Source: Cylindrodendrum hubeiense
Lineage: Eukaryota > Ascomycota > Sordariomycetes > Hypocreales > Nectriaceae
Assembly: GCA_014621425.1 (NCBI GenBank)
Contig: JAANBB010000013.1
Span: forward strand, 248,001 to 312,000
DNA length: 64,000 bases
Direction: 5' to 3'
In this document: positions 6,655 to 45,829 of the stretch, piece after piece
Numbering within the stretch: position 1 is the first letter of the stretch
Layout of the letters: every line of letters starts with the position of its first letter
Program-made: the position numbers and the translations under genes
Notes under the pieces: model-generated
Database searches by the model: none
The model's input: only the letters and a program-made list of their open reading frames with translations
Told to the model about the DNA's origin: nothing

Positions 6655-6797
6655 GCTTGTGAGGCGATTATTCGGCTGTGAAGGTCCGCCAAAACTCTTT
6701 CAGAAATTAACTTCGCAGTTCTCGCCTGTATATAATATTAGTCAATATTCTGTAGTGAGGACAAGACGCGAAATCATCTCGAGTACCTACACACACA

Positions 6798-14470: not shown

Positions 14471-14657
14471 AGCAGTTGATGGTCAAGCAGACTTGGACGT
14501 GGAAAATGCCAGGATTGCGGAGAGATCAATGACGCGCGTGTGATTGACAACACATTAGCCGATTACCCCGCAAATTGGCTTCTATTTTCATAGCGGTCAA
14601 CTAAGATGAAACAGGAATTCCGGATTGCCGTCAACCCGCTTGGATCTTCCCTGCAAG

Positions 14658-16653
14658 CTAAGCCTTTCGTGGCGTAAACACCATGTCCATCTTCGGGCAC
14701 ATGAGGGTGAAGCCATCTACCAATCCGTCCAGAAACGCCTCTGGCGTCTGGCCAGGCGCAAAACTAATGTCGTATCTATGGATGACCTGGCTTATGACAA
14801 ATCGGATTTCCATGAGTCCAAGCTGCTTTCCAACACACGAGTATTTTCCTACCGGTTGTCAGCCACTAACGAACACAACTCACCGCCGAGGCACTCACCC
14901 ATAGAGAAAGGAGCAAACGCAGAGCTATCTTTCACCAGCTCCGGCTGCGATGTCCATCTCTCAGGAATGAATTCATCTGGGCGCTCAAAACACCTCGGGT
15001 CTACGGTCATCGCATTAGTTGGGCCAGTTCTAGAAGCGCGGCAACTGCACTCACCACGGGCCACTGTGTATGTTGGAATCTGAACAATCATGTTCCCTGG
15101 GATAAATGTTTCATCAATTTGCATGCCCTGCGGGGGAGTCATTCGCTGAACACCTGAAGGGACGGCAGGGTGAAGGCGCATTCCCTCGTCGATCACCGCC
15201 TGGAGGTACTTGACCTTGGACAGCGCCATGTGCCCCGGTCCCTTATTCTGACTAAAGAAATCGTCCAATTCTTTCTGCAATTTTGCACAAATCTCAGGGT
15301 GTGTTGCAAGCTCGAATAAGATGCATGTCATGGTCGCCGAGGTCGTATCACTGTCACGCAAGTTAATCCCGTTCGGCCATAGAGTATGGCCAGCGTACCT
15401 TCCAGCCACGGTGATGAGGTTTGCATCGCCGATCAGATGCATCTCATCTTGCCACGAAGGTTGGCTCTTCTCTTTGTAAGGGTCCAGAACCACTGAGAAC
15501 ACGTCCGGTAGTTCCGGTTCCAGCTTCACACTCTGTCAGACGGGTACAATCACGCTTATGAGGAAACTATTACCTCAATCCTAGCCTTGACTCGCAGTTT
15601 GAGCCACTTTATAAACTTTTTGTATGCCATGTTCACAAACGGGATGTATTGGGTGAGGAGAAAGGCCCACGGAAATCGGCCAAGCGAGGTACCAAACACT
15701 GTCATTGTGTGCATCAGTTTCATGTAGTGGTGCGCGACTCCGCCGTTGAGCATGTTGAAGCTCTTGCCAAATGCAAGGTCTCCCATGACGTCGAATCCGT
15801 AAAAGTTCAACCAGAGGGTAGCATCCATTGGCTTGCCTGCACTGGCCTCGATTTTGCTCAGAAGTAGATCGGTGTATTTCGCCACTCTGGGCTCATAGTT
15901 TCGCAGCGCTGTTATGATTATTAGTAACTTGCTCATTATTGGCTATAGATTGCATACCTTTGGAGCTGAATCCCTTGTCCCATACTTTCCGTCGTTGCGA
16001 GTGCTCCTTGATGTCTCTTTCGGACTGTACGGATATCATAGGGTGGAAAATGTTGTACCACGGTCCCTTCAAACACGGCGACTGGGCCGAATGGATGGCA
16101 CGGAGAGCGCTGGTATTTGCAATTGACAATTCGGATGGACCTGAATCGTGTCAGCGGCCTGGCTGCGACCAACGTCAGAGATTATAGACCCACCTAGCCT
16201 GACAATATCGCCGTAGGTACGGTGTAGTTGTTGTACTTCTTCGTACATGTGTAGTTTTCTGAAAATGAGCCATACTGGGTAAACGCTAGACACGCTCGAA
16301 AGAAACGGCCCTGGAAACCGGCGCAGGGGATGGAGTAAGATTCTGTATGTGCCGATGCTGGTGTAAATGCCCCCGATGAGCATCAGCGACAGTTTGGAGG
16401 TAATAGAAATGGCAGCCCAAATGCTCTCCGAGCCCTGGGGTAGGTGGAATATGTAGCCGTAGATCAATAAAGAGTAGATGGTAGTGAAAATGAGCAAGAG
16501 CTGCGGGACCCAGAGATCCCACTCTCCTACGCGGAATAGCGTGACGTGGAGGAAAACTCCAACGAGAAACGCCGCTGTGTAGGTTAGGGGACTGTCGGGA
16601 TTGAAGATTAAGACATCCATTTTGTTGGACCCTGCAAGGAAGAAAGCAGGCAA
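14658..16653 (-). CDS. Cytochrome P450 monooxygenase with polytopic N-terminus
   Basis: Seven exons (16194-16653, 15958-16140, 15574-15908, 15399-15532, 15055-15350, 14899-15000, 14658-14848) give about 566 aa. Each of the six introns, 41-54 nt, restores a conserved P450 element. Three hydrophobic segments lie in the first 130 residues, followed by the Pro-rich hinge LRRFPGP. The I-helix AGSDTTS is created by splicing at 15351-15398. The K-helix is EGMR and the PERF-type motif is FIPERW. The haem loop FSMGKYSCVGK spans the 14849-14898 intron. The several N-terminal membrane segments resemble fungal P450s described as high-nitrogen-upregulated (family resemblance, not proven). It acts at the ER on an unknown substrate. 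ATG 16617 is an alternative start. Confidence 0.88.
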
Positions 16654-29451: not shown

Positions 29452-30696
29452 CTACAAGGAAGCGACGTGTATCTCAGAGACGGACTGCTCAAATCTATGC
29501 AGACGATCCTCAAACAAACTTTTCCAAGGCTCTTGATGTCTCATTTGCAAGATCTCCAGGGTATTTCCCGCCAGCATATTCGCCCTTTCCTTCCAATCTA
29601 GAAAGGTTTCCAGCCTCTCGTCCCGTGCAATCATTCTGCCAGCTTCGGGGACCTCCCCCAAAGGGAATGGATAATCACTACCCATCAGAATTCGACGCGT
29701 ACCGACTTTTCTTACCAGGAATTCCAGCATATCTACGTCATGTACAAGACTGTCGACCCAGATATTCTCTCCCAATGTTAAGTGCGCAGTCGGTGCAACA
29801 CCACCTGCATCAACAGCGACCAAGTCTGGCCTGCAATCGTATCCGTGTTGAATTCGGCCCAGCAGTGCGGGAAAAGCGCCCCCTGCATGTGCAAAGATCA
29901 GGCGAAGCTTTGGGTAACGCAAGAAAAGGCCACAGCAAACCAAAGAGTGAAGCGCCAGCGCTGTCTCGCAGGGCATTCCGACGAGCCATGAGGCCCAGTA
30001 TTTACCCCACCGGGTTGGGTCTTCAAGTTGCAAGGAATACCCTAATGGATGGACGAAGACGGGCATCTCGAGCTCCTCGCATGCAGCCCAAAATGGTTCC
30101 AGACTGGGGTCATCTAAATTCTTCCGATTTATCGTTGTGCCAATCTCAACCCCTTTCAACCCCAACTTGAACTTTGCGCGACGTAACTCTTCGATGGATG
30201 CATCTACATCTTGCAACGGCACTGTGGCCAGTCCAATAAAACGTGTTGGGTACTCAGCGCTCAAGTTGGCAATATGATCATTGAGATGCCTGGCAAGAAC
30301 CAGCACCGGTTCAGCTGGTTGGTCGTAGAAGAATAGAATGGGGATGGTGCTTAACACTTGTACGTCGATTGAGAAGGCATCCATATCTTTTAATCGAGTC
30401 TCGACATCGAAACAATTATCTTCGACAGTACGGAAAAACTCTCCGCCGGTCCACATGTCGACTTTGGCCGGGTTTTTTGGATTGGGTTTTAGTTGAATCC
30501 AGGGACTCTTGGAGTTTGGATTGGAGACAGGGAAACCGGAGAGGTCCGGCAATGAACGGGGCATGATATGAGTGTGCATATCGATCCGCAGCAAAGGCGG
30601 CCTGCTGCGGTGATTCGATGCCTTCGCTTCGCGGTGCGCTCCCTGGCAGCACTGCATGATTGATGTGGTTAAGATTGATCTTGTTGATAAGAGCAA
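29452..30696 (-). CDS. ACMSD-type amidohydrolase (2-amino-3-carboxymuconate-6-semialdehyde decarboxylase)
   Basis: An intronless gene of about 414 aa (about 401 aa from the inner ATG at 30657). It belongs to the amidohydrolase-2 superfamily. The zinc site is complete: DMHTHIMP gives the HxH pair, MPVFVHPLG a third His, [12 protein letters not shown] the fourth His, and GSDYPFPLG the catalytic Asp. The order, and the [18 protein letters not shown] and GVEIGT segments, match ACMSD. The reaction is non-oxidative decarboxylation of 2-amino-3-carboxymuconate semialdehyde, the dioxygenase product, to 2-aminomuconate semialdehyde. This diverts flux away from quinolinate and NAD. It shares a 359-bp promoter with the dioxygenase gene. 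The N-terminus before DMHTH is basic and poorly conserved. It is cytosolic. Confidence 0.88.
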
Positions 30697-31055
30697 ATAA
30701 TGCTAATGGTATGATATGCCGTACAAGAGAACGCTGCTATAGGAAATACTAAACAGAATTAATTTCCTCCATTAATTCAAGTGCATATATGAGCGATAGC
30801 GTGAGGAATTAAGCCGGGGCATGGAACGCTATCGCGGGAGCGGCTCGGAAGGGTCGGGTATCGTTCCGAGGGAGATAATGCTGGTAGGATTGATCAAGTG
30901 TGCGGGCCGCGACCCGACAAACTCAGCAAGGCAAGACATACTTCAGTGGGTCAGCTTCTTAATCTACGTTCGACATTTCAATTACAGTAAAGTTGAACTT
31001 TCAGTCCTGGCAAACTTAGTGGTTGAGGATATCCGCCAGAGGCGTCATACGAAAC
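30697..31055. promoter_or_regulatory. Bidirectional promoter of ACMSD and 3-HAO genes
   Basis: The 359 bp separate two divergent genes of one pathway. It holds a perfect 8-bp inverted repeat, GCGATAGC at 30793-30800 and GCTATCGC at 30828-30835, spaced 27 bp apart. This core recurs in the other promoters of the cluster. Confidence 0.6.
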
Positions 31056-31774
31056 ATGCTCCCACCCATATTCGCACTTGACCAGTGGGTGGCCGAAAAC
31101 GCCGATAAATTGCAGCCACCTGTCAACAATTACTGCTTATATGATGCCAAAGACTTCACACTGATGGTTGTTGGCGGTCCAAATGAGAGAAATGATTATC
31201 ATGGTAAGCCTCACATTGGTGTCATGCCTACCTTGAAGCGGTTGATGAGGTACTAATCTCAACGAATTGGCTACCAGTTAATGGAACGGAGGTATGTTAC
31301 GAATTGGCGCTATTTACTTGGTCTCTCACCTGTCGAACTAAGCAACTATTGAATACAGGAGTGGTTCTATCAGATTAAGGGCGACATGCTATTGAAGGTT
31401 GTGGAAAACAACACAACCTTCAAAGATATTGTGATAAAGCAGGGCGAAATGTTCCTTCTCCCAGGTAGGTCTAGTGCTTTTGAGAATAATTTCTACATTA
31501 CTGAACAGTTCACATAGGAAATGTACCCCATAATCCCGTGCGCTTCAAAAATACCATTGGGCTCGTCATGGAGCGCAAGCGTCCTGAGGGCATGCTAGAC
31601 CATCTGCAGTGGTATTGTAAGAAAGGAAACCACCCACTTCCGACTATTATCCGGAAAGATTCGTTCTATTGCGTCGATCTGGGTGTTCAGTTGAAGCCTG
31701 TGATTAAGAATTGGCAAGAGAATGAGCACTTGAGGGAATGTCCACATTGTGGGAGCGTGGAAGATCCGATGTAG
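31056..31774 (+). CDS. 3-hydroxyanthranilate 3,4-dioxygenase
   Basis: Four exons (31056-31203, 31278-31291, 31359-31464, 31518-31774) give 174 aa, the usual length for this cupin enzyme (yeast Bna1 is similar). The second exon is only 14 nt. Iron ligands are seen as DYH and EEWF after splicing and VPHNPVRF. The [15 protein letters not shown] strand and a C-terminal CPHC pair are typical. The enzyme opens the ring of 3-hydroxyanthranilate to 2-amino-3-carboxymuconate semialdehyde with O2 and Fe(II). In most fungi the single copy serves NAD synthesis (bna1). Here its place next to ACMSD, AMS dehydrogenase and a RidA-type deaminase suggests a catabolic paralogue. It is cytosolic and is probably co-expressed with ACMSD from the shared promoter. 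Confidence 0.9.
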
Positions 31775-32596
31775 TTCACTCCACTGCACACCACAAATCT
31801 CGTTTTTAATTTGGCATTTGACTGTATGAAATTCCATTTCAGCTGTATGCATTGCTTACCCATATGTTGCGGTTTGTTCATTCGCGTGTTGCTTGAAGTG
31901 AACCCTTGGTTAATTTTCACGGCATTTAATCGACGTATTTAACTATCCGATGTGCAACCGGTATTATAGGGTACTGCAGGCTTATAAATGGCCCAACTCA
32001 CCCTCTAGACTTTCTCGCTTTGCATCGACATAGACTTCCATGCCGTCCTTAATGGGTTGCCCGATCACTCGTACAGGCTGAATTCCGGCTTGTAGAAGTT
32101 AGATGAGAAAATTGAGAAATGAGCACGGATATGAGACGGAGCGATCAGGTGTCTTCCCATGGTTGCTCTAGAGGATGAGGACGTTTCTGGATGAGTAGTA
32201 TTGCTCAGATAAGAAGAACACATGAAAATTTGCTTGGGAACTTATCCGCCTGCGGCTAATGAGTCTCTGTGGATATATGGCTGCACCACCTAAATACGAT
32301 AGCTGATAGGACCGGCCCGCTAGCCGCAGTGCGACGAATCGGATCATCATTCTAATTGGGAAGCTCCATTAAATCACTGATCTCCATCACTAAATGATTG
32401 ATTTTCTCGGATACGGTCCGAAAGACATCGAGAGATCCGTCCCAATCTTGGTGTAGGTACTCCACAAACTGCCTAAGAAATTCCTCCAATCTACCTCTAT
32501 TGGTTCTCCAATTTTACAGTATCTCTCATCAATCAACTTCCCCTTTCGCGAGCCCTAAAACACGACGAAAGAAAGGTCAAAATAAACAGTACTAAG
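31775..32596. promoter_or_regulatory. Intergenic with promoter of the aldehyde dehydrogenase
   Basis: No gene is seen in 820 bp. A GATAGC copy lies at 32298-32303, about 300 bp upstream of the dehydrogenase start, followed by GATAGG and a GGCCCGCTAGCCGC element. Confidence 0.5.
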
Positions 32597-34282
32597 ATGT
32601 CTACTCTACGCGAGCCGTGGCATTTTGAGACAATCGAAGAGGTCAAGGAGCATCTAAGTGGTGACCACTTCACGCCATTCAAACTGGCCAATTTTGTCGA
32701 CGGCGATTTCAAGACCCACCTAGGCGACGACTGGATCGATACGGAAAATCCCCAGACAGGCAAACTCTTAGCCAGAATTCCCAGCAGCACCGAAGAAGAT
32801 GTTGAAAATGCTGTTCGCGCAGCTGAGCAGGCATTCCCTGCCTGGTCAAGGACCCCTAGATCCGAGCGCTCGCGATATCTACTGCAAATCGCTAAATTGA
32901 TTGAACAACGCAAGGAGCAGTTCGCCATATGGGAGAGCATCGACCAAGGCAAGACCTTAGCTCGAGCTCGCATTGAAATCGAGCGCGCAGTCTCTAATTT
33001 TTCGTACGTCGCATCAGGGCTGCAAGTAAAGGAGGAGACTGACTGACTGTGTGACTGGAACAGTTACTTTGCAACGTACAGCGTCCATGAAAAAAGTGCT
33101 GCTCGTTGGACAGATGACGACGTGCTCACATATGAGCACCGCTCACCAGTCGGACCATTCGCTTTAATCTCACCGTGGAACATGCCACTGTATCTTCTAA
33201 CGTGGAAGATTGCCCCCTGCTTGGCATTTGGCTGTACTGCGGTCGCTAAGCCAAGCGAAGTGACAAGCATGACCGCCTACTGTAGGTGTCCAGCCCAGCC
33301 CTGTTGATCATGTTCAATTAGTAACAAATGATCATCGGACAGTGCTTGGGCAAGTTTTCCAGGACGCTGGTCTACCCAAAGGTATCATTAATCTCGTTTT
33401 TGGTGCCGGTCTACCAACGGGTTCCGCGCTAGTTAAACATCCTCGGATCAAAGGAATCTCATTTACTGGAGGGACACAGACAGGACTGAAAATTCGCAAA
33501 GACATCGTTGAAGACATCGGCAAGCACACCTCACTTGAGCTTGGCGGCAAGAATCCCACATTAGTCTTTGATGATGTCGACCTAGATAAAGCAGTCGCAC
33601 TTGCAGCTAAGGCTGCATTTGAGAACCAAGGAGAGGCATGCTTGACCGTTTCGTGATGTCTTGTGACATTTATGATCGCTAACATTTTCGTTGATAGATC
33701 TGTCTCTGCGGCTCGCGAATTTACATACAACGCACTATCTACAAAGAATTCATCGCTAAATTCGTATCCCACGTTGCAAAGACTTACCAACTTGGCAAGA
33801 CCGTGGGTGCAGTGGCGTCACGGGGTCATTTCAACAAGGTTCGAGGGTTTCTCACAGAGGCGATGAAATATCCAGATTCCTACCTTCTTGGCTCCATACC
33901 TGAAGAAAACCCAACAAAAGGCTATTGGATTGAGCCAACCATTCTGGAGGTGCCTATCGACAGTTCAATTATGCGTGAGGAGATCTTTGGGCCAGTGGTG
34001 ACGGTTGCTCCGTTCGACACGGAGGAAGAAGCCCTCCGTCTCGCAAATGACAGCCAATATGGTCTTGCCAGCGTGCTACTGACCAACGACGCTAGAAGAA
34101 TACGGTATCTGGGTGAGAGACTTGAAGCCGGTATGGTCTGGGTTAACTGCTGGCTTGTGCGGGAGCTCGGAACGCCTTTCGGAGGCATGAAGGCGTCGGG
34201 TACGGGCCGCGAAGGTGGGGATTATAGCCGAGACGTGTTCACTAATGTGCGCACTGTACACATACCTCAACTTAGTATGTAG
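32597..34282 (+). CDS. Aldehyde dehydrogenase, 2-aminomuconate-6-semialdehyde dehydrogenase type
   Basis: Four exons (32597-33003, 33064-33281, 33343-33635, 33698-34282) give 500 aa. The Rossmann and active-site features are present: [46 protein letters not shown] and [13 protein letters not shown]. The catalytic Cys in the last motif lies just after the third splice. That intron (33636-33697) begins GC rather than GT and ends GATAG, and only this choice gives the family sequence. The EICLCGSR signature fits the ALDH8A1/AMSDH group, which oxidises 2-aminomuconate semialdehyde to 2-aminomuconate with NAD+, the step after ACMSD. The [15 protein letters not shown] block is created by the second splice. 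It is cytosolic. Confidence 0.9.
33636..33697 (+). other. GC-AG intron in the aldehyde dehydrogenase gene
   Basis: The donor is GAG|GCATGC, the branch region GCTAAC and the acceptor GATAG. A GT donor 12 nt downstream (GTTTCG) would also keep frame but would insert four residues into a strictly conserved active-site motif. Confidence 0.65.
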
Positions 34283-34624
34283 ATAGCAATATTTGCTGGC
34301 GATGCTGGTGCTAGTGCAACATACTTGTCAAGCGCAATTAGTGGCAGTCATAGCCGAGCCGGATCCTTTCCGGAAAGAAGTGATGAGAGGTTAGCCACTT
34401 GACCTTGGATCTACTCAGGTACCAAGAAAAAGCGAAGAAAATAAAATAAACTCAAATTTTACTCTTAAACATGATGGACAGTAAGTAACTATCAAAATTG
34501 TTCCTTTCTAACCACATCGTGCTTTATCAGGCGCCAAATAAACTAATAATGAAAGCCGTCGTTGTGTTGACAATGAGGAAGATCATCAAGCGGACCTTGC
34601 ACATGACGAGCATCCATCATTGTC
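34283..34624. other. Convergent spacer
   Basis: An AT-rich region between the 3' ends of the aldehyde dehydrogenase and RidA-like genes. No gene is seen. Confidence 0.5.
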
Positions 34625-35083
34625 TTAATAACTAATCATAGCAGTGCACTTTATCTCGACCAACAGCACCTTGTTTGGCAGCTCCCTGACCCCAATTGTT
34701 GTCCTTGCTGGGGCAGTGGCTCGATCTGGCCAGACTTTGTTCCACTCATCATTCATTCCAGAATAGCAGCCATCGACATCGGTCAAGAAGACGGTGGCGT
34801 CAACGACGTTGTGAATTCCACCTTTGCCCTCTGTAGCGCCCTGGAGAACAAGGTCGATGTTACGTAGAACTGCTGCCGTTTGTTCGCGGACATCTAGTGT
34901 CACATTTCCATCATCGTGTTTAGTCACGCCTTCGTGTGTTCCATCGCCACGTCGAGACGATATGCCGGATACGTGAATGATTTTTTGGGTTGCGGAGATG
35001 GGGATTATGCGGGCATGCGGGTAATTGGCGAGCCCTTGCGCCTTGTTTTGCTGAAGGAAGTAGGGTTGCCCGATGGAAGCCAT
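34625..35083 (-). CDS. RidA-family protein, probable 2-aminomuconate deaminase
   Basis: An intronless gene of 152 aa, from ATG 35083; longer in-frame starts upstream add a low-complexity extension without family similarity. The RidA/YjgF fold is clear: NYPHARIIPISATQKIIHVSGISSRRGDGT, REQTAAVLRNIDLVLQGA, VDATVFLTDVDGCYSGMN, and APARTTIGVRELPNKVLLVEI with the anion-binding Arg. Family members in bacterial 2-aminophenol and 3-hydroxyanthranilate pathways hydrolyse 2-aminomuconate to 4-oxalocrotonate and ammonia, and the gene order here supports that role over the general 2-iminopropanoate deaminase (inference). Its upstream region has two GATAGC cores and a CGG-rich tandem repeat. Confidence 0.8.
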   Translation of the reverse strand: MASIGQPYFLQQNKAQGLANYPHARIIPISATQKIIHVSGISSRRGDGTHEGVTKHDDGNVTLDVREQTAAVLRNIDLVLQGATEGKGGIHNVVDATVFLTDVDGCYSGMNDEWNKVWPDRATAPARTTIGVRELPNKVLLVEIKCTAMISY

Positions 35084-35340
35084 TCCGGGTAAAATGGATA
35101 AATGGTGTTGAATGGTGGGTATGATACGAGTGTCAAGACGAGGTTGTTGATACAATCTTTCTGCTGTCCTTCCTGTGCAGGGTCTTGGATTATCAACAGG
35201 TACTGAACCAGAGTCCCGCTCTCGCCTCAATATCCGAGTGGGACGGATCAATCCGAGCGTAGTTCTGGCTAGATACTTGCAGATTGGTCTGAGAAGACGT
35301 GCTCGTCTGTGAAATGCAATCGGATCAGAACACAGCACCC

Positions 35341-35432
35341 GCTATCGGACCGGATGCGGGTCGCGGTCCGGTCGGCGGCTACGGTCCGGTCGGAGGTTGC
35401 GGCCCGCTCCCTCCCAAGCCGCCACTGATAGC
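35341..35432. promoter_or_regulatory. CGG-rich repeat region upstream of the RidA-like gene
   Basis: An 18-bp tandem repeat occurs at 35364-35381 and 35382-35399 (15 of 18 identical), each unit starting CGGTCCGGTCGG. It is bracketed by GCTATC at 35341-35346 and GATAGC at 35427-35432. CGG triplets are the usual contacts of Zn2Cys6 proteins (family knowledge). The element lies about 260-350 bp upstream of the RidA-like start. Confidence 0.6.
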
Positions 35433-35932
35433 GGATGCTCGGATCTTTCCTTTACTAAGCGGTGGACTATCTCCATAATCTCGGTACGGTGTTCCCGGAA
35501 ACCATGTATCGCACTTACTCTGAGCGCTCAATCTCACCCCTTGTCCAGGCTAGTTCTGCATTTTTACAGCATTTAAAACATGAAGCTCTCCGTGAAAATT
35601 GTTTTCTGAGCTTGGCGGGGCCAGATCAACCAAGAAGTGGGGCATTCGACTCAAAGTGTTGACACTCCCCAAGAAGGGATAGCTCCGGCAAATGTATCGT
35701 CGAAGTCGTCATTGACCAGGTACGGCTCAATACGATTTCAGGCCAGGGCGGTGTACCTTGGGTGGTTACATGTGAGAGGTTATATGGCCCCACCCGGACC
35801 GAGGATGGTCATGATACTCAGTCGGTTCAATTGCACTTGAGCTTTAGTCTATGAGACGATTCTTAGTTCACATGAATCCTGGTCCAAAAACTTCATCCGA
35901 TCAGACAGAGCCGCGGTACCTACCCTGACACC

Positions 35933-36496
35933 ATGCTTCCAGCCTCAGAAAGAAAATTCGTTGGAGTTCATACACGTTTTTGGAACGCGCACGAGTCAGA
36001 GGTGGGACACCTTTCGAAACAAGGGCAAAGGATGCTCAAAAAGGGCCGGGACCTGAGACGTAGAGCGACACTCAACCGAAAACGAAACATGCCCAAGAGG
36101 AGACGAGACACAGAGATAAAGCACCTGGATAACATCCATGATAAGATCGATCAAACCCATATTTCATCACAACGGGCATATCAAAGTCCTCCTCAAGACT
36201 CAAGTTCCGATGATCTCTCAATATCTGACTTGTTGAAAACCAACCAGCTGGGCTCTGAGACGGAATTTCTTCACCACCTCGCAGCAACCGAAAGCGAACA
36301 AGACACTCTTCTCAATTTATTCTGCACAGCTGAAGAAGAACCTGGGACTCAAACTTCTCAGGACAAAGTCCAGTCATTGAACAAGCAATATTATGGAGCT
36401 GAGCACCAGGAATCGCTACATACACAGCCCAACGAGGGGGAAAATACTGAATTTGAGGATTGGGTCTGGGATGGTTTTTATCAACTTTACTGCTGA
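35933..36496 (+). CDS. Hypothetical basic/acidic protein, possibly regulator-derived
   Basis: A single frame of 187 aa on the opposite strand to its neighbours. Residues 25-65 are very basic (MLKKGRDLRRRATLNRKRNM followed by PKRRRDTEIKHL), weakly like a bZIP basic region followed by a helix. The rest is acidic and Gln/Ser-rich and ends EDWVWDGFYQLYC, like the activating tail of a transcription factor. I do not recognise a family. It converges on the pathway regulator, ending 90 bp from its stop. It could be a real short regulator, a remnant of one, or a chance frame. Confidence 0.35.
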   Translation: MLPASERKFVGVHTRFWNAHESEVGHLSKQGQRMLKKGRDLRRRATLNRKRNMPKRRRDTEIKHLDNIHDKIDQTHISSQRAYQSPPQDSSSDDLSISDLLKTNQLGSETEFLHHLAATESEQDTLLNLFCTAEEEPGTQTSQDKVQSLNKQYYGAEHQESLHTQPNEGENTEFEDWVWDGFYQLYC

Positions 36497-36586
36497 ATCC
36501 ATGTGTTTTCAAACCTTGACCACCAACTACAGACCATCGACGACCATTCTTTCCATTGAAATGTGTAGTGCGGGCAATTTCCAGTC

Positions 36587-39362
36587 TTAGTAAGATGGAC
36601 CTCCCCAAAAGGAAGTAGGCATGGCTGGCATGTCGAACAAATCATCAGAGACGAACATATCTCCTCCGAGACTCCCCTGAAGAAGTTGGTCAAAACCACT
36701 GCAGTGGTCAACAGCCTCTGCTAGATTTCCTTCCAGATCCCAATCCCTTTGCAAACTATTGCCACGGGACACTTTATCCTGAAATACTGATTGCTCCGTG
36801 CTCGGTAGTTTGGTGGCGGTCCCTGCCAGGCGGTCCCAATCACCAATCTCAGAATTCGCTTCCCCCTGCAATGAAGATCCTGCTTTCTCGCTCTCAGTTG
36901 TATCATTAGCCTGCCTTTGTCTTTTTAGCGGCCTAGGGTCCCCAGGCCAGCCTGCGTCGTCTATAGGAGGGTTATGCACCCTCTTAGTCGAGTTGTTTAG
37001 TTTGCTCATTGAGTGCGTAAAGGTATCCTCCACATGTGAAAAGTTGCAAACCCCCCTCTTGTAAAAGCCCTGGTGAACCAGGATGGCAAAGTCAATGTAC
37101 TCCTTTATTATTCTTTGGCACTTGATGGCTCCACTCCACGTTGCCTCGAGCTTCTCCAACCCCGCCAGAGCAAGCTTTGTGTTCTTCAATGCACTATCAA
37201 AACATGTGCTGTCGTCTGAGCCTCTACTGCGCTGCAACTGGATCATTGCGCAGACAAACAGACTCTGACCATGCAAGACGTGATAGTGCCCTCTAGGCAC
37301 AGATTCTAGAAATTTGGCCGAGCCTCGAATGCATAGGCTTGAGGCGTTTGCACATCTGGACATTGCTTCGGTGCAATCTATCGGCGATTTTCGGTGCGGA
37401 TGAGGCATAAATGACCGATAAAGCTCAACCATGGCTAGATGATAGGTTGAGAGACACAGTTGGGCACCAATCAGTAGCTTTCCGTGATTGGCTCTCTTAA
37501 CCACCTGTGGTACCTTCTCGGTGGCCCATGTTTGTAGTGAGAGATGTAGTTGACGGACCTTGTCGCGTAGTTCTTCAGCACTCGTGGATTTGCGCCAGCG
37601 TTTTGCGTTTCTGACCGAATTGACTACCTTGTGTATGTTGCCCATTATGTCATAGAGTTGGACAAGGGCAGGAAGTGCACTAGCCTCGGCTTCGGGTCCC
37701 TGGCTGATGGTGTTGACCTCTGAGGGGAGCTCAACGTCGCAGTCTTCCGGGTCAATCATTACTGGTCGTCCAAGGGCGAAGCTCAATTGCTTGTCGAGGA
37801 GGTACAAGCACCACCAAATCAAACGACGGTTGTTGCGCTCATTTGGTGGCAGTCTAAGACGTTCTGGAGACCTCTTGCATCAATGTTAGTCCTCTACTCA
37901 TAATTCATAAACCTGCGGAGTTGATTCTCACATGTAGCCCAATGTCTTGACCTGCTCTTATTGCTCTTCCCGTAAGTATCCAAGCCTCGGCTTGACTTCC
38001 AGTCGCTGAAAGGTACAAGCTTAGCAATACATCAGCGACGACGATGTCCTGTGGATCGCCTCTCTTGTAGCCTCGGGTATCTGGACCACAGCTGGCAAAC
38101 CATTGGCTTAGATTATAGAGGTCTGGCCCAGCAGTTGTGTCGGAGTATCGGCTGTCTCGGAAGTGCTGAGTTGAAGGCATCAGCGGCAAAGCAGCTGCGA
38201 GCGCTGCAAAGAATACTGCGGCATGGCCAGCATCGACAATACTAGCCTCACGAAGGCTGTTGTATATGGCCCGTAAGTCGGTAATTGATATGACAGGGAA
38301 GATCGTTTCCACCTCTTCAGCGAAGACTTTGAAAAGCACGTCAACCATTTCGGGGGACGGAAGCTCCCAATCTTTACTGCTCGGGATGGAAGAAGTAGTG
38401 ACATGATCAACGGTGGAGGTAGGGTCAGTACACAACTCGTTTTCCTCGACAAATCCTTTCATCCGTAAGCTTTCGGAAATATGGCGATGTAGCCCAGAGC
38501 ATCTATCAATAACAAAGCCTGTTGACCCGATGCCTACGTATCTTATCCTAGTAAGCTTCTGCAAGGCAACATGTCGGACGAAACTAACCTTAAGCCTTTC
38601 ACATCCTTGAGGAGCTGGCCATACTCGTCTGCGTAGCAGCATATGTGTGAAACATTTGTCACATTACTGCCTCCATAAATGACGTCGTCCTGTTGCTCGG
38701 GAATTTTGTGCTTCAATTTGGCGGTGCTTATAGCACTAGGTTCATTTAAAAATATCGCCTGCTGCGTGCTTTGGACGGGGGGTGATGCCAGGGTCTGGGT
38801 GTTTGCGACAATGTCGAGTTGTTCGGCCTCGGTCTCACTGACACAATTGGCTTGCCCATTCTCTTCTTCTCCATTTCCAGCGTCAGTGCCCTGCACCGTC
38901 TGGTGGCTTGTGCTAATCTGGTCAGAAAGCTTTTGTAGCATGAGCCAAATGGATTCTATAGCGCCTCCACATTTTTGCTCTATTGATGCAATTCGATGTT
39001 CGAGGCTTTGAACCCTATCATGATGCACTTAGCAATCATCACTGTCCAGATCATATAGTGTAGTCTCACGTGTTTCCCGTGTTTCCGGTCATTTGCAGGC
39101 TTTGATCGGCCTCGAAGTATTCACAGCCAACCCCAAAAGCTTTACATCTCTGACATGGATCTTCCCCACTGCATTTCAATTTCTTTTTTCGACAGCTTTC
39201 GCAAGCCTGCCGCACTCGCTGCCTCTCATTTGGCGGATGATGGATATCGGGCAGGGCGGGCATTGATGAACTGCTGCGGCAAATATTCTTGGGCATAGCT
39301 CTCTTGCTAGTATTTGCCATCATGACTTCGTGTTGATGACAGAAGACCCAATGACGCAACAA
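36587..39362 (-). CDS. Zn(II)2Cys6 transcription factor of the 3-hydroxyanthranilate cluster
   Basis: Four exons (39070-39362, 38589-39014, 37932-38547, 36587-37873) with introns of 55, 41 and 58 nt give up to 873 aa; ATG 39323 is an alternative start. The zinc cluster CESCRKKKLKCSGEDPCQRCKAFGVGC is followed by a coiled-coil linker (RVQSLEHRIASIEQKC). The fungal-specific middle homology domain includes FPVISITDLRAIYNSLREA, GRAIRAGQDIGLH and RRLIWWCLYLLDKQLSFALGRP, the last bridged by a splice. The C-terminus is Ser/Asp-rich. It is nuclear. Position beside the catabolic genes and shared GATAGC cores in its own promoter and theirs suggest it is the pathway regulator and autoregulated (inference). 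Confidence 0.85.
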
Positions 39363-39899
39363 TCAATTCAACTGACTGTATCTCGGAAGGTATTCAAGCT
39401 CTAACCGTCTTCCCATGTCATATTGGAGCTTATCAGTATTTTGATTCGTGGCGAGTGATCCGAAGGGAGATAGCCGACATCCGCAGCATCGGGCCGTCAT
39501 CCGGCGGAAGATAGCCGCAATCAGACGGAACTTCGGATATCAGATCGCCAACCGGCCCCACTCTTCCGTACCTTGCTTCCGCATAGTTCACAGTCAAATC
39601 GCTCTTTGGTTTGAACTTGGCATCCCTAGTTGACCAAATAGGGCACATCGATTAAACTCTGCTAAATGGAACTTGCGGGTTTACTGGCTCATTAAGCAGA
39701 CTGGGCTGTAATGCGGAGCAACTCGACTGTTGCATGAGATTCCCAAGTGTCTATGTATTAAAGCTACACAGCCAGCATCATATATCAGAGGGAGAACCTT
39801 GAGCAAGGTAACAAAGTATTAAAATTTGATGCAGTCACTAGCGTGATAGTTATCAGGACATAATTAGAATATGACTCCTTGCGAACAAATAACCTCCGG
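39363..39899. promoter_or_regulatory. Promoter of the cluster regulator
   Basis: It contains GATAGC at 39469-39474 and 39510-39515, each followed by CG, 41 bp apart, with CGG and CCG triplets between and after them (ATCCGGCGG, AGACGG). This lies about 110-150 bp upstream of the regulator's start. The right part is the 3' flank of the sulfotransferase-like gene. Confidence 0.55.
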
Positions 39900-40742
39900 T
39901 TATGACATATATCCCTTTGTTCGGGCAAGCCAAATGCCACCCATAAGCCCTGTTCCTGCTACTCCAACAGAAGTTGTTAGTTTGAGAGCTCCTCCTAGGA
40001 TTGCGAGAAAATGAAGCCTGCGGAACTCATTTCGAAAGACACGCCCCTCATTCAGACGTGGAAACGGCACGCTCGGAACTTCTTTGCCCAGGAATTTGCA
40101 GAGTGGTTCCCAGTCCAAGTCCTTCAGATGCAGCTCCAGTAGTCGTTCAGCGGGCACCATACGGCGTACGGCGTCGTAGTGGCGGTCATAGCCGGCGCGC
40201 ATAACTTGGCGATTGTTCGTCTTGCGCAGGTCGCAGACGCCCAAGAGTCCCATGTACAGCTTCCGTGTGATCTGACTGATATAAATCCCCAGCAGCGGCT
40301 CCATGAAGTTTCCGCTCAGCCAGGCGAGAAAACCATCAGATGAGGGGCGAACGAGCGTATTCAAGAAACTATCAGCCCAGCTATCAAAGTCTCGGTGGAC
40401 AAGAACGATGCGCGCCTCTGGATATGCCTTGAGCAGAGGTTCAGCAAACGGCGCGACGTCGGTTAGGGCCTCGCAAGGGCCAAAGTAAGCGTCCCAGTCC
40501 TCGCGTGCCCAGGTGTGGCCTGTGTATGAAGGCAAGCACGGAATGTTGGCATCAGCCGCAGCGCCAAGGCCTACCCATTTCTCTGGGGATCTTGCCATGG
40601 AGGACGAATGGAAGACATCGCGGTATCCAAGGATATTGAGGGCTTCTTGTAGGGAGTTTGAACCGGTACGGAAGAAGCCCAGAGAGATGACTTGCTTGGG
40701 GCGCACAGGCCCAGAAGTGAATGGGACGAAACTCATCGGCAT
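39900..40742 (-). CDS. P-loop sulfotransferase-like protein
   Basis: An intronless gene of 280 aa. The N-terminal P-loop is VISLGFFRTGSNSLQEALNILGY, the 5'-phosphosulfate-binding type of the Sulfotransfer_4 family; the downstream ARIVLVHRDFDSWADSF gives the conserved Arg/Ser region that binds the 3'-phosphate. These fungal proteins are common but their acceptors are unknown, and database names such as NAD-dependent epimerase are misleading. A hydrophobic C-terminal segment (FLAILGGALKLTTSVGVAG followed by TGLMGGIWLA) could anchor it in a membrane. It stands between two regulators and has no obvious pathway partner. Confidence 0.75.
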   Translation of the reverse strand: MPMSFVPFTSGPVRPKQVISLGFFRTGSNSLQEALNILGYRDVFHSSSMARSPEKWVGLGAAADANIPCLPSYTGHTWAREDWDAYFGPCEALTDVAPFAEPLLKAYPEARIVLVHRDFDSWADSFLNTLVRPSSDGFLAWLSGNFMEPLLGIYISQITRKLYMGLLGVCDLRKTNNRQVMRAGYDRHYDAVRRMVPAERLLELHLKDLDWEPLCKFLGKEVPSVPFPRLNEGRVFRNEFRRLHFLAILGGALKLTTSVGVAGTGLMGGIWLARTKGYMS

Positions 40743-41091
40743 ATCACTGAGATAGCGAAGAGTCTGGCCTCTATTGATACTGCATGTGTTTTATTGAACA
40801 CATCATCGCAGATTCAGCCCAACTAAAGACGGAATGTGCCTTTATATCTAGAAATGACACCGAGTCTGACGTCAGACCTAAGATACCTATTCCACTCAAA
40901 AGTAAGACAAACGATACGTATTTCAGCCCACGGCGGCATGATCCAAGCGGTCACCTGAGGCAGAATGTACTAAAATGTGGACGTGGCGCTCAGAGCTGAA
41001 CTTGTAGATGTCTCGCTTATACCAGAGGACAGGGACATGCCGACAAATAAGTAAGCAAAGGGGCTTGGTATTGTACATCCTACCCAAACAC
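40743..41091. other. Intergenic, sulfotransferase-like promoter
   Basis: No gene is seen. It is upstream of the sulfotransferase-like gene and downstream of the next regulator's stop. Confidence 0.4.
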
Positions 41092-43387
41092 CTATAAATC
41101 TGCCGGATTTCCAGGATTGAAAAATCTTTCGAAGCTGTTGAATGAATCCACCGACAGCGCCCAGTCCATAAACTGGCCGAACCCATCCTGTTGACTAGGG
41201 TCAAGCCAAGCCAGCCCGTCGCCGTTGCTATTGATGCTGTCCAAAACTAATGTGGCCGGTTGCACGTCATTCCCTCCCGCAGTAGATGTGATGCCACTGC
41301 CGAGCCGCCCGGCGAGAATATCCGCCTTGGCCATCAAGTCCCTCGTTATCGCAGCCGCGTCGGCACTGACGGCAAAGTTGGCCCCGAAGATGTCAAAGAC
41401 AGCAACGGCCTTGTCCAACGCCTGGCGCGCCTTGAGCGTGGCCTGGTGGATTGGATACGCAAGCACGAAGCCGACGAGCGTAATGGCCGTATTCCACTGC
41501 ATGCTGAAATACTCGGACCAGCCGCTCATCAGGTCCGACTCGGTGATGACTTGGTGCATTATCAGCGTAAAAGACACGGCGTGGTCGACGCAGGTGGCGG
41601 CGTGGCGCTCCCCAACGGGTGTGTAGGTGCCCGGGTGAGAATAAAAGGTGATGAAGGGGCGGGTGAGGTTGACGAGCACGTTGTGGTATGTCAGCTCGAG
41701 GCATACGCGCTGACGCTGGAGCCACGTTGGCGCGAGGGCGTCAATCTCGACAGCCAAGCAGCTCGTAGAAAAGGGCTGCCCGCCACCGCGACGCTGCATC
41801 TTCAACTCAACGGGGACCTTGTCGACCCAGGCCTTCATGGCAGGGATTGTAGTGGCCAAGAGCTTGGCACACACTTCGACTGCGTTGGGATCCGTGTAGA
41901 TGCACGAGAGGCCGTTTCGGCTTATCACCTCGCCGAACCGAGTCCACAGCGTGTCGTGGATGTTGATCATGGTTAGGAATAGCTGCTGGTTCTGAATGGC
42001 GTAGGTGAGCCACGTAACATTAGGCCCGTAAGACCCAAGAGTCGCGCCGTTGTAGGACGCGGCTTCGGCATCGTCGGAAAGCATCGTCACCGTCACCTGT
42101 GACCCATCGATCAGGAATGGACGTCCCAGCTTGGAGGAAATCTTGGCGTCCATGGTCCATAGCATCCACCAGATGCGCTTGCGCAGTTCGCGCTCGCCCC
42201 GAGGCATGTCCACGGGAGGCTCGACGTGCAGACCCAGGACTTGGGCGGTGCGAATGGCCTGGGCTGTGATGATGTGGCTCATGTTCTGGAACGATGCGCA
42301 GCATAGATAGACGGTGGCGAAGATGTAGCTTTGCACCGTCGTCATCGAGGGGCTCTCGAGGTCGGCCATGAGCAGAGACTGTGATCGTCGATAATACCAC
42401 CGTCCTGCAATAGTAGCGTCTTCTGGAGATGCGCCGCCGCTCGGCGAGTTGGTCGCAGCATGAGGAATGTACGCATACCCGTACTGCAAGCACAGCGCGA
42501 GGACAATGTCGACAAGAGGAGACTGCTTTCGGCATTGGCGGGAAGGCTCCCACAGCGAGGCATAGTGTTTCCGGAACTCAACTTCGTCGATGATGGGCAA
42601 GATGCAGTGGTAGCCTTCCCAGAATAGCCGGAGCAGAGACTCTTCCTGCGGGCGCGTCATGAACCGCGCGCGTTCGATACCGGCTGCCGTCGGATCTTCA
42701 ACGTCGTCCCTCGCGTCCGCGGCAAGATGAACCGTCTTGCTGGGGGCGCGAAGCTGCATCGAGTCGTCCGCACACGGTTGTTGAAGCGCCTTGCCGAGAA
42801 AGCCCCCGATGCGACTGACGAAGTAGAAGGATGAGGCGGCGCCGTAGTAAGAGGGCTGGTCGGACCGTGCCGTGTCGACGTAGATGCCCTTCCATTGGGG
42901 CTTCGACGTGGAGGAGAACGTCGGCAGTGATAAAATCTGCGATGAGGCGCCTTGCAGTGAGACTTGTGTATCAAATCCTGGGCTCGAAAAGTTGGACGTG
43001 TGATCGGGTGTGGGCATCGAGGCTCGGTCGGCCGACGAGAGCAGTTGGGCCTCCAGCTCTCTCACGCGCTGCTTCAATCTCTCAACCTCCCTGCGTAGAC
43101 GGCGTCTTAGAACACATCCTCGGTTTTAAATAGACCTCATACCTCAGCGCCTGCGGCAACGTCCTCGGCTCATCGTCAACCCCCTTGTGCGTGCACTGCG
43201 CATTTCGCTGGCGACAGGCCTTGCACGGCTGAGCGTTGTCGCATCTGATCTTTCTCGCCCGGCACCAGTCGCAAGCCCGTGAGACCTGTTTGCGAGCTCG
43301 TCGAATCGAAACCTGTGCCTCGTCTGTCCCCACCGGTGGAGGAGACAGCTGGGTATTAGGGGTCGTCATGACTCCGTTGATGCGCAT
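41092..43387 (-). CDS. Zn(II)2Cys6 transcription factor next to OYE and GFA genes
   Basis: Two exons, 43143-43387 and 41092-43090, around a 52-nt intron (GTATGA..GCAG), give 747 aa; ATG 43369 is an alternative start. The zinc cluster is CDWCRARKIRCDNAQPCKAC followed by RQRNAQC. The splice creates a leucine-rich dimerisation helix, REVERLKQRVRELEAQLL. The middle homology domain shows LLRLFWEGYHCILPIIDEVEF, ATVYLCCASFQNMSH and LRKRIWWMLWTMDAKISSKLGRP, as in xylanolytic/XlnR-like and other fungal regulators. Its upstream region carries six CGGAG copies, and the same pentamer is dense upstream of the OYE and GFA genes, which suggests auto- and cross-regulation (inference). Codon use is GC-rich. 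Confidence 0.85.
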
Positions 43388-43955
43388 TCAAAGCAGGCCG
43401 TTGCGGAGGACGGTGCGGAGCTTCGGCCCGGAGAATTGGAAGAGGGAAAAGCAAAAATGAGAGGGAAAATGCGGGGTGTCGGACGGAGTTGCGGAGTTGT
43501 CGCTTTATCAGCTGTGATTACGGAGTACGCAGAGACGCAAATAACACTGCAAAGACGTCATGTCAGACGTCACCTTTAGCGTACCACGCCACTGAAATCT
43601 CTACAGCCGGCCATTCCTCTTCCATCACATGTCATCTCACTGGCCGTGTGGTTACACTGATACAGACCGGCAGATCTACAGTCTGTATCAATGGTGGGGC
43701 GGCAATCATTTGAGTTCTCACTTCACCACGTTGTTCTAGCGCCGCACATCTTTGTTCCATCGTATTGCTTGCATTTCTCGCCATTCTGGGGGACTTGGCG
43801 AGACCAGCATCACAGACAAGGATCATAGTCAATAACACCGCGACATGGATTGTAATAAAAAAATTGTTGTATATCTATACGCCTTTTTCCTCTTGTCTAT
43901 GTATTGACCACATTAAATATCAACCTTATAAACTCCAAACTCAAGCCAGCCAGCC
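43388..43955. promoter_or_regulatory. Promoter of the Zn2Cys6 gene: CGGAG array, CRE-like pair, palindrome
   Basis: CGGAG occurs at 43404, 43416, 43429, 43484, 43492 and 43521, six times in 122 bp. Two AGACGTCA copies lie at 43553-43560 and 43565-43572, like bZIP CRE sites. A perfect 10-bp inverted repeat, TGATACAGAC at 43658-43667 and GTCTGTATCA at 43681-43690, has a 13-bp spacer. The far right is the 3' flank of the OYE gene. Confidence 0.6.
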
Positions 43956-45104
43956 TCATGCGTTCGCCTTCAAATACTCAGGGCTGAACGGGTAGTCGTT
44001 GTAGCCCACATTCGACATGGTGAGGTAGAAAGTAGCCCGGTTGTACTTGTTCAGCTCAATTCCATTCTTGACCCTGTAAACCAGATCAGGGTTGGCCAGG
44101 AAGTCACGGCCGAAGGCGATGAGCACATCCCACTTCTTGTAGTGCTCCTCCAACGCCCAGGCCGCAGTGTCTGGCTTGTAGCCTCCAGCGACGAGGACGG
44201 GTGACAGGTTATCCCAGGCCTCGAGAATGAAATCCAGTGTCTTGCCCTTGTTAATCTGCTCGGCGCCGAGAACAATCGCAGCGGGGTCACCCGTCGCCTC
44301 GACAAGAGAAAGGTAGGCGAATTTCACATTCAGCTTCTTGAGCTCGTCGACGAGGTACGTGTACAGCTCGTTGATATCAGACTTTTCGGCTCCTTGGAAG
44401 CCAGCGTAAGGGGAAAACCGGATCGCCACCTTCTCGGCGCCAATGGCGGCAACAACGGCCTTGACCACCTCAAGCGTCAGTCGCGATCGGTTCTCGATGG
44501 AACCACCCCACTTGTCGGTGCGAGTGTTGATGCTGTCCGAGAGGAATTGATCCAGGAGATAACCATGTGCTGAATGGATCTCAACACCGTCTCCTCCAGC
44601 TGCAACAACCCTCTTAGCGCTATCGACGAAGTTCTGGATAGTCTCGAGGATCTCCTCCTCCGTCATAGCTCGAGGTGCAACATCGGAGCCTGCCAGGGGT
44701 ACGTTGCTGCTGGACCTGTATGGGAAACCGCGCTCCGCGATATAGTCGGTTGTGGAAGCTCGGCCAAGAGCCCAAATCTGCTGGAAGAAGAACGAGCCCT
44801 TGGCGTGGACTGCATCGATAATCTTGCTCCAGGCCGCAACCTGGTTCTCGCTAACGAAACCGGGTACGTTGCGCTGGCCTTCCTCGGCATGCGAAACCGA
44901 AGTGGCCTCGGAAATGACCAATGTGCCGGGCGTAGAGGCACGGTCGGCGTAGTACTTCTCCATGATGGGGATAGGTGTGTGGTCGTTGTCATTGCGGTTG
45001 CGGGTCAGGGGAGGGAAGACGATGCGGTGCTGGAGGGTGAAGTTGCCGACTTTCAAGGGCTTGAAGAGCTTAGTCTCGGAGAGGGGGGTGATAGTTGAGC
45101 CCAT
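43956..45104 (-). CDS. NADH:flavin oxidoreductase, Old Yellow Enzyme family
   Basis: An intronless gene of 382 aa, normal for fungal OYEs. The FMN-binding TIM barrel starts LFKPLKVGNFTLQHRIVFPPLTR. The substrate-binding pair is in GVEIHSAHGYLLDQFLS, followed by INTRTDKWGGSIENRSR. Barrel strands at VAIRFSPYAGF and PVLVAGGY complete the fold, and FGRDFLANPDLVYRVKNG binds the FMN phosphate. OYEs reduce activated C=C bonds such as enones with NAD(P)H. The gene is divergent from the GFA-domain gene over 725 bp that carries seven CGGAG sites. A role in detoxifying electrophiles together with the GFA protein is inference. It is cytosolic. Confidence 0.9.
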   Translation of the reverse strand: MGSTITPLSETKLFKPLKVGNFTLQHRIVFPPLTRNRNDNDHTPIPIMEKYYADRASTPGTLVISEATSVSHAEEGQRNVPGFVSENQVAAWSKIIDAVHAKGSFFFQQIWALGRASTTDYIAERGFPYRSSSNVPLAGSDVAPRAMTEEEILETIQNFVDSAKRVVAAGGDGVEIHSAHGYLLDQFLSDSINTRTDKWGGSIENRSRLTLEVVKAVVAAIGAEKVAIRFSPYAGFQGAEKSDINELYTYLVDELKKLNVKFAYLSLVEATGDPAAIVLGAEQINKGKTLDFILEAWDNLSPVLVAGGYKPDTAAWALEEHYKKWDVLIAFGRDFLANPDLVYRVKNGIELNKYNRATFYLTMSNVGYNDYPFSPEYLKANA

Positions 45105-45829
45105 CTTGTCTGTGGGTGGTGTGTTGCGGGAAGTGATGAGAGATTATTGCTTGTTGAGCAAGGGTGCTATGAAACCTCAAGTATGCCAATTGGGTTGAGT
45201 GAAGAAGTCGCTTCAGGCTTGGTGACTGTGATGATGTTTGTTGTTCTGGATAGCCAATTTTTGAGATGAAGAAGAACCCAAGTCCTTTTATGTGTTGCGG
45301 TGTAGGTGTCTCGTAACGCGATCGGCGCTATGGGAATAGAGTGATGTGGATCCAATTGATGGCGTTGTGGAATACCATGGAATGCCTCATGCACCGTAGA
45401 CGCGGAGTCGCGGAGTCGGGCCGCCGCGGAATCACGGAGGGGTGAAACCTCCGGCCGTGTCTCTGTTTGTGTGTGAACACGAGGTGGCTGGCGGCACTAA
45501 CACGAACGCGAGTGCTGACGTCACTCCGAAACTCCGTCCCGCAGCTCCGTCTCCATCCCCGCGTTGTGATTATGCTTCACTTGCGCAAGCCCGAGACAAC
45601 ACCATCATCACCATGCCGGCAATTCAGAAAGTAAGCATAGTAAGAAGGCAATATCTACAAAAGAGAGCAAATGCGCACTCAAAATATAATATCCAACCCA
45701 TCATCACCGGTTCTTAGCTTCTTACCAGTCTAAGCATCGCACTTCATCATCACCAGTTCTTGGCTTCATTTACAACTCCAAGAATCCACTTTATCATCAC
45801 ACAGTAAAACAACCCAACCAACACACAAC
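45105..45829. promoter_or_regulatory. Divergent OYE/GFA promoter with CGGAG array
   Basis: CGGAG or its reverse CTCCG occurs at 45403, 45411, 45435, 45449, 45524, 45532 and 45545, seven copies in 147 bp. A palindromic CRE, TGACGTCA, is at 45516-45523. Close to the GFA start, a segment of about 23 bp (CATCATCACCxGTTCTTxGC..) is duplicated at about 45699-45721 and 45744-45766 with two transitions. Confidence 0.65.

What the first reader, a model, noticed from the sequence alone, without database searches (positions are those of the whole stretch)
29452..39362. Clustered fungal 3-hydroxyanthranilate meta-cleavage pathway with its own regulator
Four adjacent genes encode consecutive steps: 3-hydroxyanthranilate dioxygenase, ACMS decarboxylase, 2-aminomuconate semialdehyde dehydrogenase and a RidA-type 2-aminomuconate deaminase; a Zn2Cys6 regulator is next to them. 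This set mirrors the bacterial nba/amn route for tryptophan, anthranilate or 2-nitrobenzoate breakdown. In fungi the dioxygenase is normally known for NAD synthesis, and I am not aware of a described fungal cluster of this content. It would turn kynurenine-derived 3-hydroxyanthranilate into a carbon and nitrogen source. Downstream enzymes (oxalocrotonate decarboxylase, hydratase, aldolase) and kynureninase are not in the window.
Basis: partly seen in the sequence, partly recalled or inferred. Interest (0 to 1): 0.78.

Follow-up and report, generated by a model that had tools for sequence, protein, structure and literature searches.

The report
Fungal 3-hydroxyanthranilate breakdown gene cluster
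A filamentous fungus carries, side by side, four genes predicted to take apart a tryptophan breakdown product, next to a likely control gene; the same kind of cluster was already described in 2021, so this is a good but not new example, with the linked control gene as its one fresh detail.

Summary
Induction could not be tested.

The novelty claim fails. Martins et al. 2021 (PMC7842363) described this cluster in Aspergillus, Fusarium, Metarhizium and Penicillium, upregulated on salicylate in A. terreus (which lacks the RidA gene in its cluster). The likeness to bacterial nba/amn clusters covers the upper steps only: no lower-pathway gene was found on this contig. A genome-wide aldolase search was inconclusive.

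The paper's text names no regulator. CGGNCCG palindromes look enriched upstream of the genes, but the pattern was picked from 63. Verdict: new member of a known kind, modest interest.

The parts
29452..30657 (-). [quoted passage not shown]
   Evidence: Pfam Amidohydro_2 E 1.8e-36; best solved relatives are ACMSD entries 2wm1, 4ofc, 4igm, 4ign, E 1.5e-78 to 1.9e-77 (human by recall); only close copy in the genome; homologues named ACMSD in many ascomycetes
31056..31774 (+). 3HAO: 3-hydroxyanthranilate 3,4-dioxygenase, exons 31056-31203, 31278-31291, 31359-31464, 31518-31774, 174 aa
   Evidence: gene model; TIGR03037 181 bits, above its cut-off 146; NF009763 197 bits, below its cut-off 220; best solved relative 1zvf, E 3.5e-51 (yeast by recall)
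32597..34282 (+). AMSDH: 2-aminomuconate semialdehyde dehydrogenase, exons 32597-33003, 33064-33281, 33343-33635 (GC donor follows), 33698-34282, 500 aa
   Evidence: gene model; aldehyde dehydrogenase; full length matches AMSDH 4i1w at 4.7e-100, sixth row, with HpaE 2d4e first; for the C-terminal 232 aa the first six rows are AMSDH; no NCBIfam cut-off reached among the 25 of 40 models shown
34625..35083 (-). AMDA: RidA-type protein, predicted 2-aminomuconate deaminase, 152 aa
   Evidence: Pfam Ribonuc_L-PSP; best solved relative 2-aminomuconate deaminase 6izh, E 1.6e-12, next row 8.6e-9; 40.9 bits against the TIGR00004 cut-off of 106.25, which the C224 paralogue passes with 125.3
36587..39320 (-). 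Zn2Cys6 transcription factor, introns 39069-39015, 38588-38542, 37931-37874, 857 aa; candidate pathway regulator
30903..30909 (.). CGGNCCG palindrome in the shared ACMSD/3HAO upstream region (candidate regulator site)
32313..32420 (.). two CGGNCCG palindromes (32313, 32414) upstream of AMSDH
35346..35406 (.). four CGGNCCG palindromes at exact 18-base spacing (35346, 35364, 35382, 35400), about 260-320 bases upstream of the RidA start; a fifth is at 35795
39490..39496 (.). one CGGNCCG palindrome upstream of the regulator

Best explanation
This is a catabolic cluster that drains 3-hydroxyanthranilate (from tryptophan through kynurenine, or another aromatic) away from NAD synthesis. 3HAO opens the ring to ACMS; ACMSD removes the carboxyl before ACMS cyclises to quinolinate; AMSDH oxidises 2-aminomuconate semialdehyde before it cyclises to picolinate; the RidA-type protein releases ammonia from 2-aminomuconate, giving 2-hydroxymuconate / 2-oxo-3-hexenedioate, a carbon and nitrogen supply. 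The Zn2Cys6 protein most likely switches the genes on. Shown: gene content, intactness, family identity, separate NAD-route paralogues. Inferred: activities, flux, regulation and the lower route. [quoted passage not shown] 2021.
For: Enzyme identities. Second 3HAO on C351, 51% identical to the window copy and closer to yeast Bna1 (241.7 vs 177 bits). RidA best matches 2-aminomuconate deaminase, while a canonical Rid lies on C224. Co-location in other ascomycetes. Published cluster of the same content, upregulated in A. terreus on salicylate.
Against: No expression or metabolite data for this organism. In A. terreus none of the pathway intermediates could be definitely identified. The full-length AMSDH ranks HpaE and betaine/aminoaldehyde dehydrogenases above AMSDH in the PDB. 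No 4-hydroxy-2-oxovalerate aldolase reached its cut-off (43.6 of 286 bits), though none of the 14 control genomes did either, so that search is inconclusive; the end of the route is unknown. No upstream gene (IDO, KMO, kynureninase) lies in the cluster.
Confidence: 0.87

Rival explanations
1. The genes serve NAD and quinolinate balance: ACMSD and AMSDH act as an overflow valve (as ACMSD does in mammals, by recall), not as a growth pathway.
For: The best ACMSD relatives in the PDB are entries that are human by recall. A de novo NAD route appears present.
Against: The cluster has its own second 3HAO and a deaminase closest to 2-aminomuconate deaminase, which an overflow valve would not need; a regulator gene adjoins.
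Confidence: 0.15
2. The cluster works in breakdown of another aromatic compound (salicylate-, anthranilate- or nitrobenzoate-like) that enters through 3-hydroxyanthranilate, rather than in tryptophan breakdown.
For: In A. terreus the cluster responded to salicylate, and an aryl-CoA ligase is among its Aspergillus neighbours. An AMP-binding (ligase-type) gene lies in this window at 10172-11860, about 18 kb away. Kynureninases and IDO are on other contigs.
Against: None of the ten frames scanned between 29452 and 39362 is a monooxygenase, short-chain dehydrogenase or ligase; the genome has the kynurenine supply enzymes.
Confidence: 0.25
3. The cluster makes picolinate-type or other secondary metabolites, with the genes as biosynthetic tailoring steps.
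For: 2-aminomuconate semialdehyde can cyclise to picolinate. A sulfotransferase-like gene, a second transcription factor gene (Fungal_trans domain), an old-yellow-enzyme-type gene and transporters follow to the right.
Against: AMSDH and the deaminase would compete with picolinate formation. The four-gene set recurs in published clusters and ACMSD/RidA pairs recur elsewhere; none of the ten frames scanned in the block is a synthase.
Confidence: 0.05

Closest known systems
3-hydroxyanthranilate catabolic gene cluster of Ascomycota (Martins et al. 2021, mSystems, PMC7842363; outline, passages, section 8 and term searches seen)
   Same: Same enzymes side by side (3HAO, ACMSD, AMSDH and, except in A. 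terreus, AMDA of the YjgF/RidA family); a separate second 3HAO elsewhere in the genome, as ATEG_00088 in A. terreus.
   Different: Here a Zn2Cys6 gene adjoins; the paper's text has 0 occurrences of 'Zn2Cys6' and 'transcription factor' (figures not held). The Baeyer-Villiger, SDR and amino acid transporter neighbours drawn for Aspergillus were not among the ten frames scanned in the block.
Bacterial nba / amn clusters for 2-nitrobenzoate or 2-aminophenol (recalled)
   Same: Same chemistry from 3-hydroxyanthranilate to 2-aminomuconate and its deamination; RidA closest to a solved 2-aminomuconate deaminase (bacterial by recall).
   Different: No FAA_hydrolase or aldolase match on the window's contig; ACMSD scores higher with entries that are human by recall (about 268 bits) than with those that are bacterial by recall (about 184 bits).
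Mammalian ACMSD / ALDH8A1 branch of the kynurenine pathway (recalled)
   Same: ACMSD closest to entries that are human by recall; the same two steps follow.
   Different: Clustered genes, with a deaminase of the RidA type among them.

Membership tests
3-hydroxyanthranilate catabolic cluster of Ascomycota | 3HAO, ACMSD and AMSDH genes adjacent | tested here: met
   AMSDH substrate assignment is the least secure
3-hydroxyanthranilate catabolic cluster of Ascomycota | RidA-family gene (AMDA) in the cluster (recurrent, not universal) | tested here: met
3-hydroxyanthranilate catabolic cluster of Ascomycota | a second 3HAO elsewhere in the genome | tested here: met
   C351 copy, 51% identical, closer to yeast Bna1
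3-hydroxyanthranilate catabolic cluster of Ascomycota | upregulation on an aromatic growth substrate | not testable with these tools
   no expression data for this genome
Bacterial nba/amn type operon | lower-pathway genes (decarboxylase, hydratase, aldolase) linked | tested here: not met
   none of 22 FAA_hydrolase matches and none of 4 aldolase-model matches lies on contig C35; the ten frames scanned in the block show none
Bacterial nba/amn type operon | 4-hydroxy-2-oxovalerate aldolase anywhere in the genome | tested here: inconclusive
   best 43.6 of 286 bits, but 0 of 14 control genomes reached the cut-off either, E. coli included
Housekeeping Rid (RidA/Mmf1) deaminase, as a reading of the RidA gene | passes the NCBIfam TIGR00004 cut-off | tested here: not met
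   40.9 vs 106.25 bits for the window protein; the C224 paralogue scores 125.3
Zn2Cys6 fungal transcription factor | Zn(II)2Cys6 domain plus fungal transcription factor domain in one gene | tested here: met
   domains on separate frames; joined in a predicted gene model that aligns with P0122 over both

The most novel reading that the evidence does not exclude
The adjoining Zn2Cys6 protein is the so far unreported dedicated regulator of fungal 3-hydroxyanthranilate catabolism. It acts through CGGNCCG palindromes upstream of each cluster gene, including a four-site array before the deaminase, and perhaps also on the IDO/kynureninase pair on C564, whose intergenic stretch holds one such site; it has travelled with the cluster in a few lineages only.
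Probability: 0.35. Interest if true: 0.45.

Novelty: new member of a known kind. Interest (0 to 1): 0.3.

Why it matters
It adds to the evidence that moulds can break down 3-hydroxyanthranilate by the route used in animals and some bacteria, instead of only making NAD from it. The linked regulator, if confirmed, would give a handle for switching the pathway on and for finding the lower steps, which Martins et al. left open.

Tried and rejected
Rejected: the window 3HAO as the only copy; RidA as the general deaminase; the cluster as undescribed; a second full cluster in this genome (no second close ACMSD). The FAA_hydrolase gene next to the second 3HAO on C351 was considered as a lower-pathway enzyme; it resembles FAHD1 by recall only, so it was set aside. 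Other paper searches showed, in the rows listed, no further paper on this fungal cluster beyond PMC7842363 and the FAMeDB paper PMC13094099 (passages seen); one search listed 20 of 37 papers, 12 of 13, and 15 of 101. The organism could not be named: the best named protein relatives are mixed (Aspergillus, Phaeosphaeriaceae, Xylariales). Synteny in other fungi could only be judged from contig lengths and locus tags. CGGNCCG was one of 63 patterns scanned. In a first-order Markov simulation, 2 of 4 upstream regions were clearly enriched and 2 borderline: ACMSD-3HAO p 0.057, 3HAO-AMSDH 0.004, 1 kb before RidA 0 of 2000, regulator 0.0655. The NAD-route 3HAO on C351 has no such site in the 2.7 kb before it, and the four sites near the second kynureninase on C555 are not directly upstream of it. 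3HAO homologues were not searched, for lack of searches, so there is no 3HAO tree; no other tree was built.
Full report
What is there. The stretch 29452-39320 holds five intact genes. ACMSD (30657 to 29452, -) and 3HAO (31056-31774, +) diverge from a 398-base region; AMSDH (32597-34282, +) follows; the RidA-type gene (35083 to 34625, -) converges on AMSDH; the Zn2Cys6 gene (39320 to 36587, -) lies next. The gene models need only short introns. One AMSDH intron (33636-33697) uses a GC donor, which restores the expected sequence around the catalytic cysteine (the expectation is recalled). For the regulator 22 in-frame splice models were possible, and one was chosen by eye for agreement with homologues.

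Identity of the enzymes. ACMSD: its four best solved relatives are ACMSD entries with E 1.5e-78 to 1.9e-77 (human by recall), followed by other ACMSD entries at about 1e-53 (bacterial by recall). 3HAO: 1zvf (yeast Bna1 by recall) is its best solved relative, and it passes TIGR03037, though not NF009763. AMSDH: the whole protein scores best with HpaE and betaine/aminoaldehyde dehydrogenases, AMSDH entries starting at the sixth row; for the C-terminal 232 residues the first six rows are all AMSDH. None of the 25 NCBIfam models shown (of 40 matched) reached its cut-off. The substrate of this enzyme is thus the least secure assignment and leans on the neighbours. RidA type: 2-aminomuconate deaminase 6izh is the best solved relative by a clear margin. 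The window protein is 89% identical to its closest homologue, from an unnamed source, and 74% to the closest named one.

Is it the housekeeping set? No. The genome has a second 3HAO on contig C351. Assembled by hand, it is 51% identical to the window copy and scores 241.7 bits against 1zvf where the window copy scores 177. A canonical Rid protein lies on C224 (125.3 bits against a cut-off of 106.25), where the window protein reaches only 40.9. The C224 protein matches YjgF-family, YabJ and Mmf1 structures better (100.5 bits for the best) than 2-aminomuconate deaminase (41.9 bits).

Supply and outlet. Four IDO loci were found (C269, C564, C174, C13). The one on C564 (11845-13114, -) diverges from a kynureninase (13779-15233, +), so the tryptophan end is partly clustered on another contig. 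For the outlet, Tautomerase_3 matches exist on C112 and C401 and there are 22 exon-level FAA_hydrolase matches, none on the window's contig C35. The 4-hydroxy-2-oxovalerate aldolase model gave at best 43.6 of 286 bits. None of the 14 control genomes reached that cut-off either, although E. coli carries such an enzyme by recall, so this search does not show absence. Whether the end of the route is bacterial-like, or runs through 2-oxoadipate as Martins et al. also consider, is open.

Prior description. Martins et al. 2021 (PMC7842363; outline, passages, section 8 and term searches seen) name and describe the '3-hydroxyanthranilate catabolic cluster', with 3HAO, AMSDH and ACMSD and, recurrently but not in A. 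terreus, a RidA-family gene proposed as 2-aminomuconate deaminase. They report it in some Aspergillus, Fusarium, Metarhizium and Penicillium, upregulated on salicylate in A. terreus, with no definite identification of the intermediates. A 2026 database paper (PMC13094099, passages seen) lists 3-hydroxyanthranilate among eight central ring-opening intermediates in fungi.

Spread. Of 7982 ACMSD homologues passing (8000 scored) 120 were listed, and their named rows are largely ascomycetes. Of 295 RidA homologues passing, 120 were listed. Four of them have near-consecutive locus tags (Pestalotiopsis fici PFICI_02126/02122, Cercospora kikuchii CKM354_000588300/000588500, Penicillium malachiteum N7488_000509/000507, P. 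argentinense N7532_004059/004057). Four lie on contigs of 27-79 kb. The other six share contigs of 0.4-8.8 Mb, which is weaker. The remaining listed rows showed no shared contig in these lists; many are short pieces or cluster representatives, so this is not a rate.

The regulator. Of 7994 scored candidates, 14 passed; five are close (37-40% identity): two from Seiridium, one each from Xylariales sp. PMI_506 and Neopestalotiopsis, and one from an unnamed source. The other three show no such link in the lists, and no Aspergillus homologue was close. In its own genome the nearest paralogue match is 36% over about 200 residues. So the regulator may be linked to the cluster in some lineages only. 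Martins et al. do not mention one in the text (figures not held).

Candidate sites. CGGNCCG occurs 20 times in the window, 8 of them in the three upstream regions (2723 bases; 0.9 expected), with one more upstream of the regulator. Four stand at exact 18-base spacing at 35346-35400. In 21 other loci of this genome there were 23 in 97735 bases. The pattern was picked from 63, and four of the eight sites form one local repeat; two of four regions were only borderline in simulation. This is a lead and not a result. One site also lies between IDO and kynureninase (C564:13618).

Surroundings. To the right lie a sulfotransferase-like gene, a second gene with a Fungal_trans domain, an old-yellow-enzyme-type gene and MFS transporters; to the left a DUF7580 gene and a glycosyl hydrolase and, about 18 kb away, an AMP-binding enzyme. 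The last is worth noting, because an aryl-CoA ligase is among the Aspergillus neighbours in the paper. Not all open frames of the window were scanned.

Conclusion. A sound new example of a described fungal catabolic cluster. The adjoining regulator and its possible sites are the only fresh elements.

Noticed in passing
L046/L047, contig C564:11845-15233: An IDO gene and a kynureninase gene stand back to back, so the start of tryptophan breakdown is also partly clustered. A similar pair in A. fumigatus is recalled, not checked.
   Followed up: partly
L017, contig C350:14839-15279: A second RidA-type gene, 52% identical to the window one and also closest to 2-aminomuconate deaminase, lies near a luciferase-like monooxygenase gene and a weak Fungal_trans match (22.2 bits, below its cut-off of 23).
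   Followed up: partly
L018, contig C351, about 6120-7990: The NAD-route 3HAO is convergent with an FAA_hydrolase gene that looks like FAHD1 by recall.
   Followed up: partly
contig C390:96701-102328: An ACMSD-like amidohydrolase (33%), an FAA_hydrolase and a match to the KMO query (29%) lie close together, perhaps another aromatic breakdown cluster.
   Followed up: no
window 33636-33697: The third AMSDH intron appears to use a GC instead of a GT donor.
   Followed up: yes
window 39900-45143: A sulfotransferase-like gene, a second gene with a Fungal_trans domain and an old-yellow-enzyme-type gene, with no evident tie to the pathway.
   Followed up: no
window 10172-11860: An AMP-binding (ligase-type) enzyme gene lies about 18 kb from the cluster; an aryl-CoA ligase is among the cluster's Aspergillus neighbours in Martins et al..
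   Followed up: no
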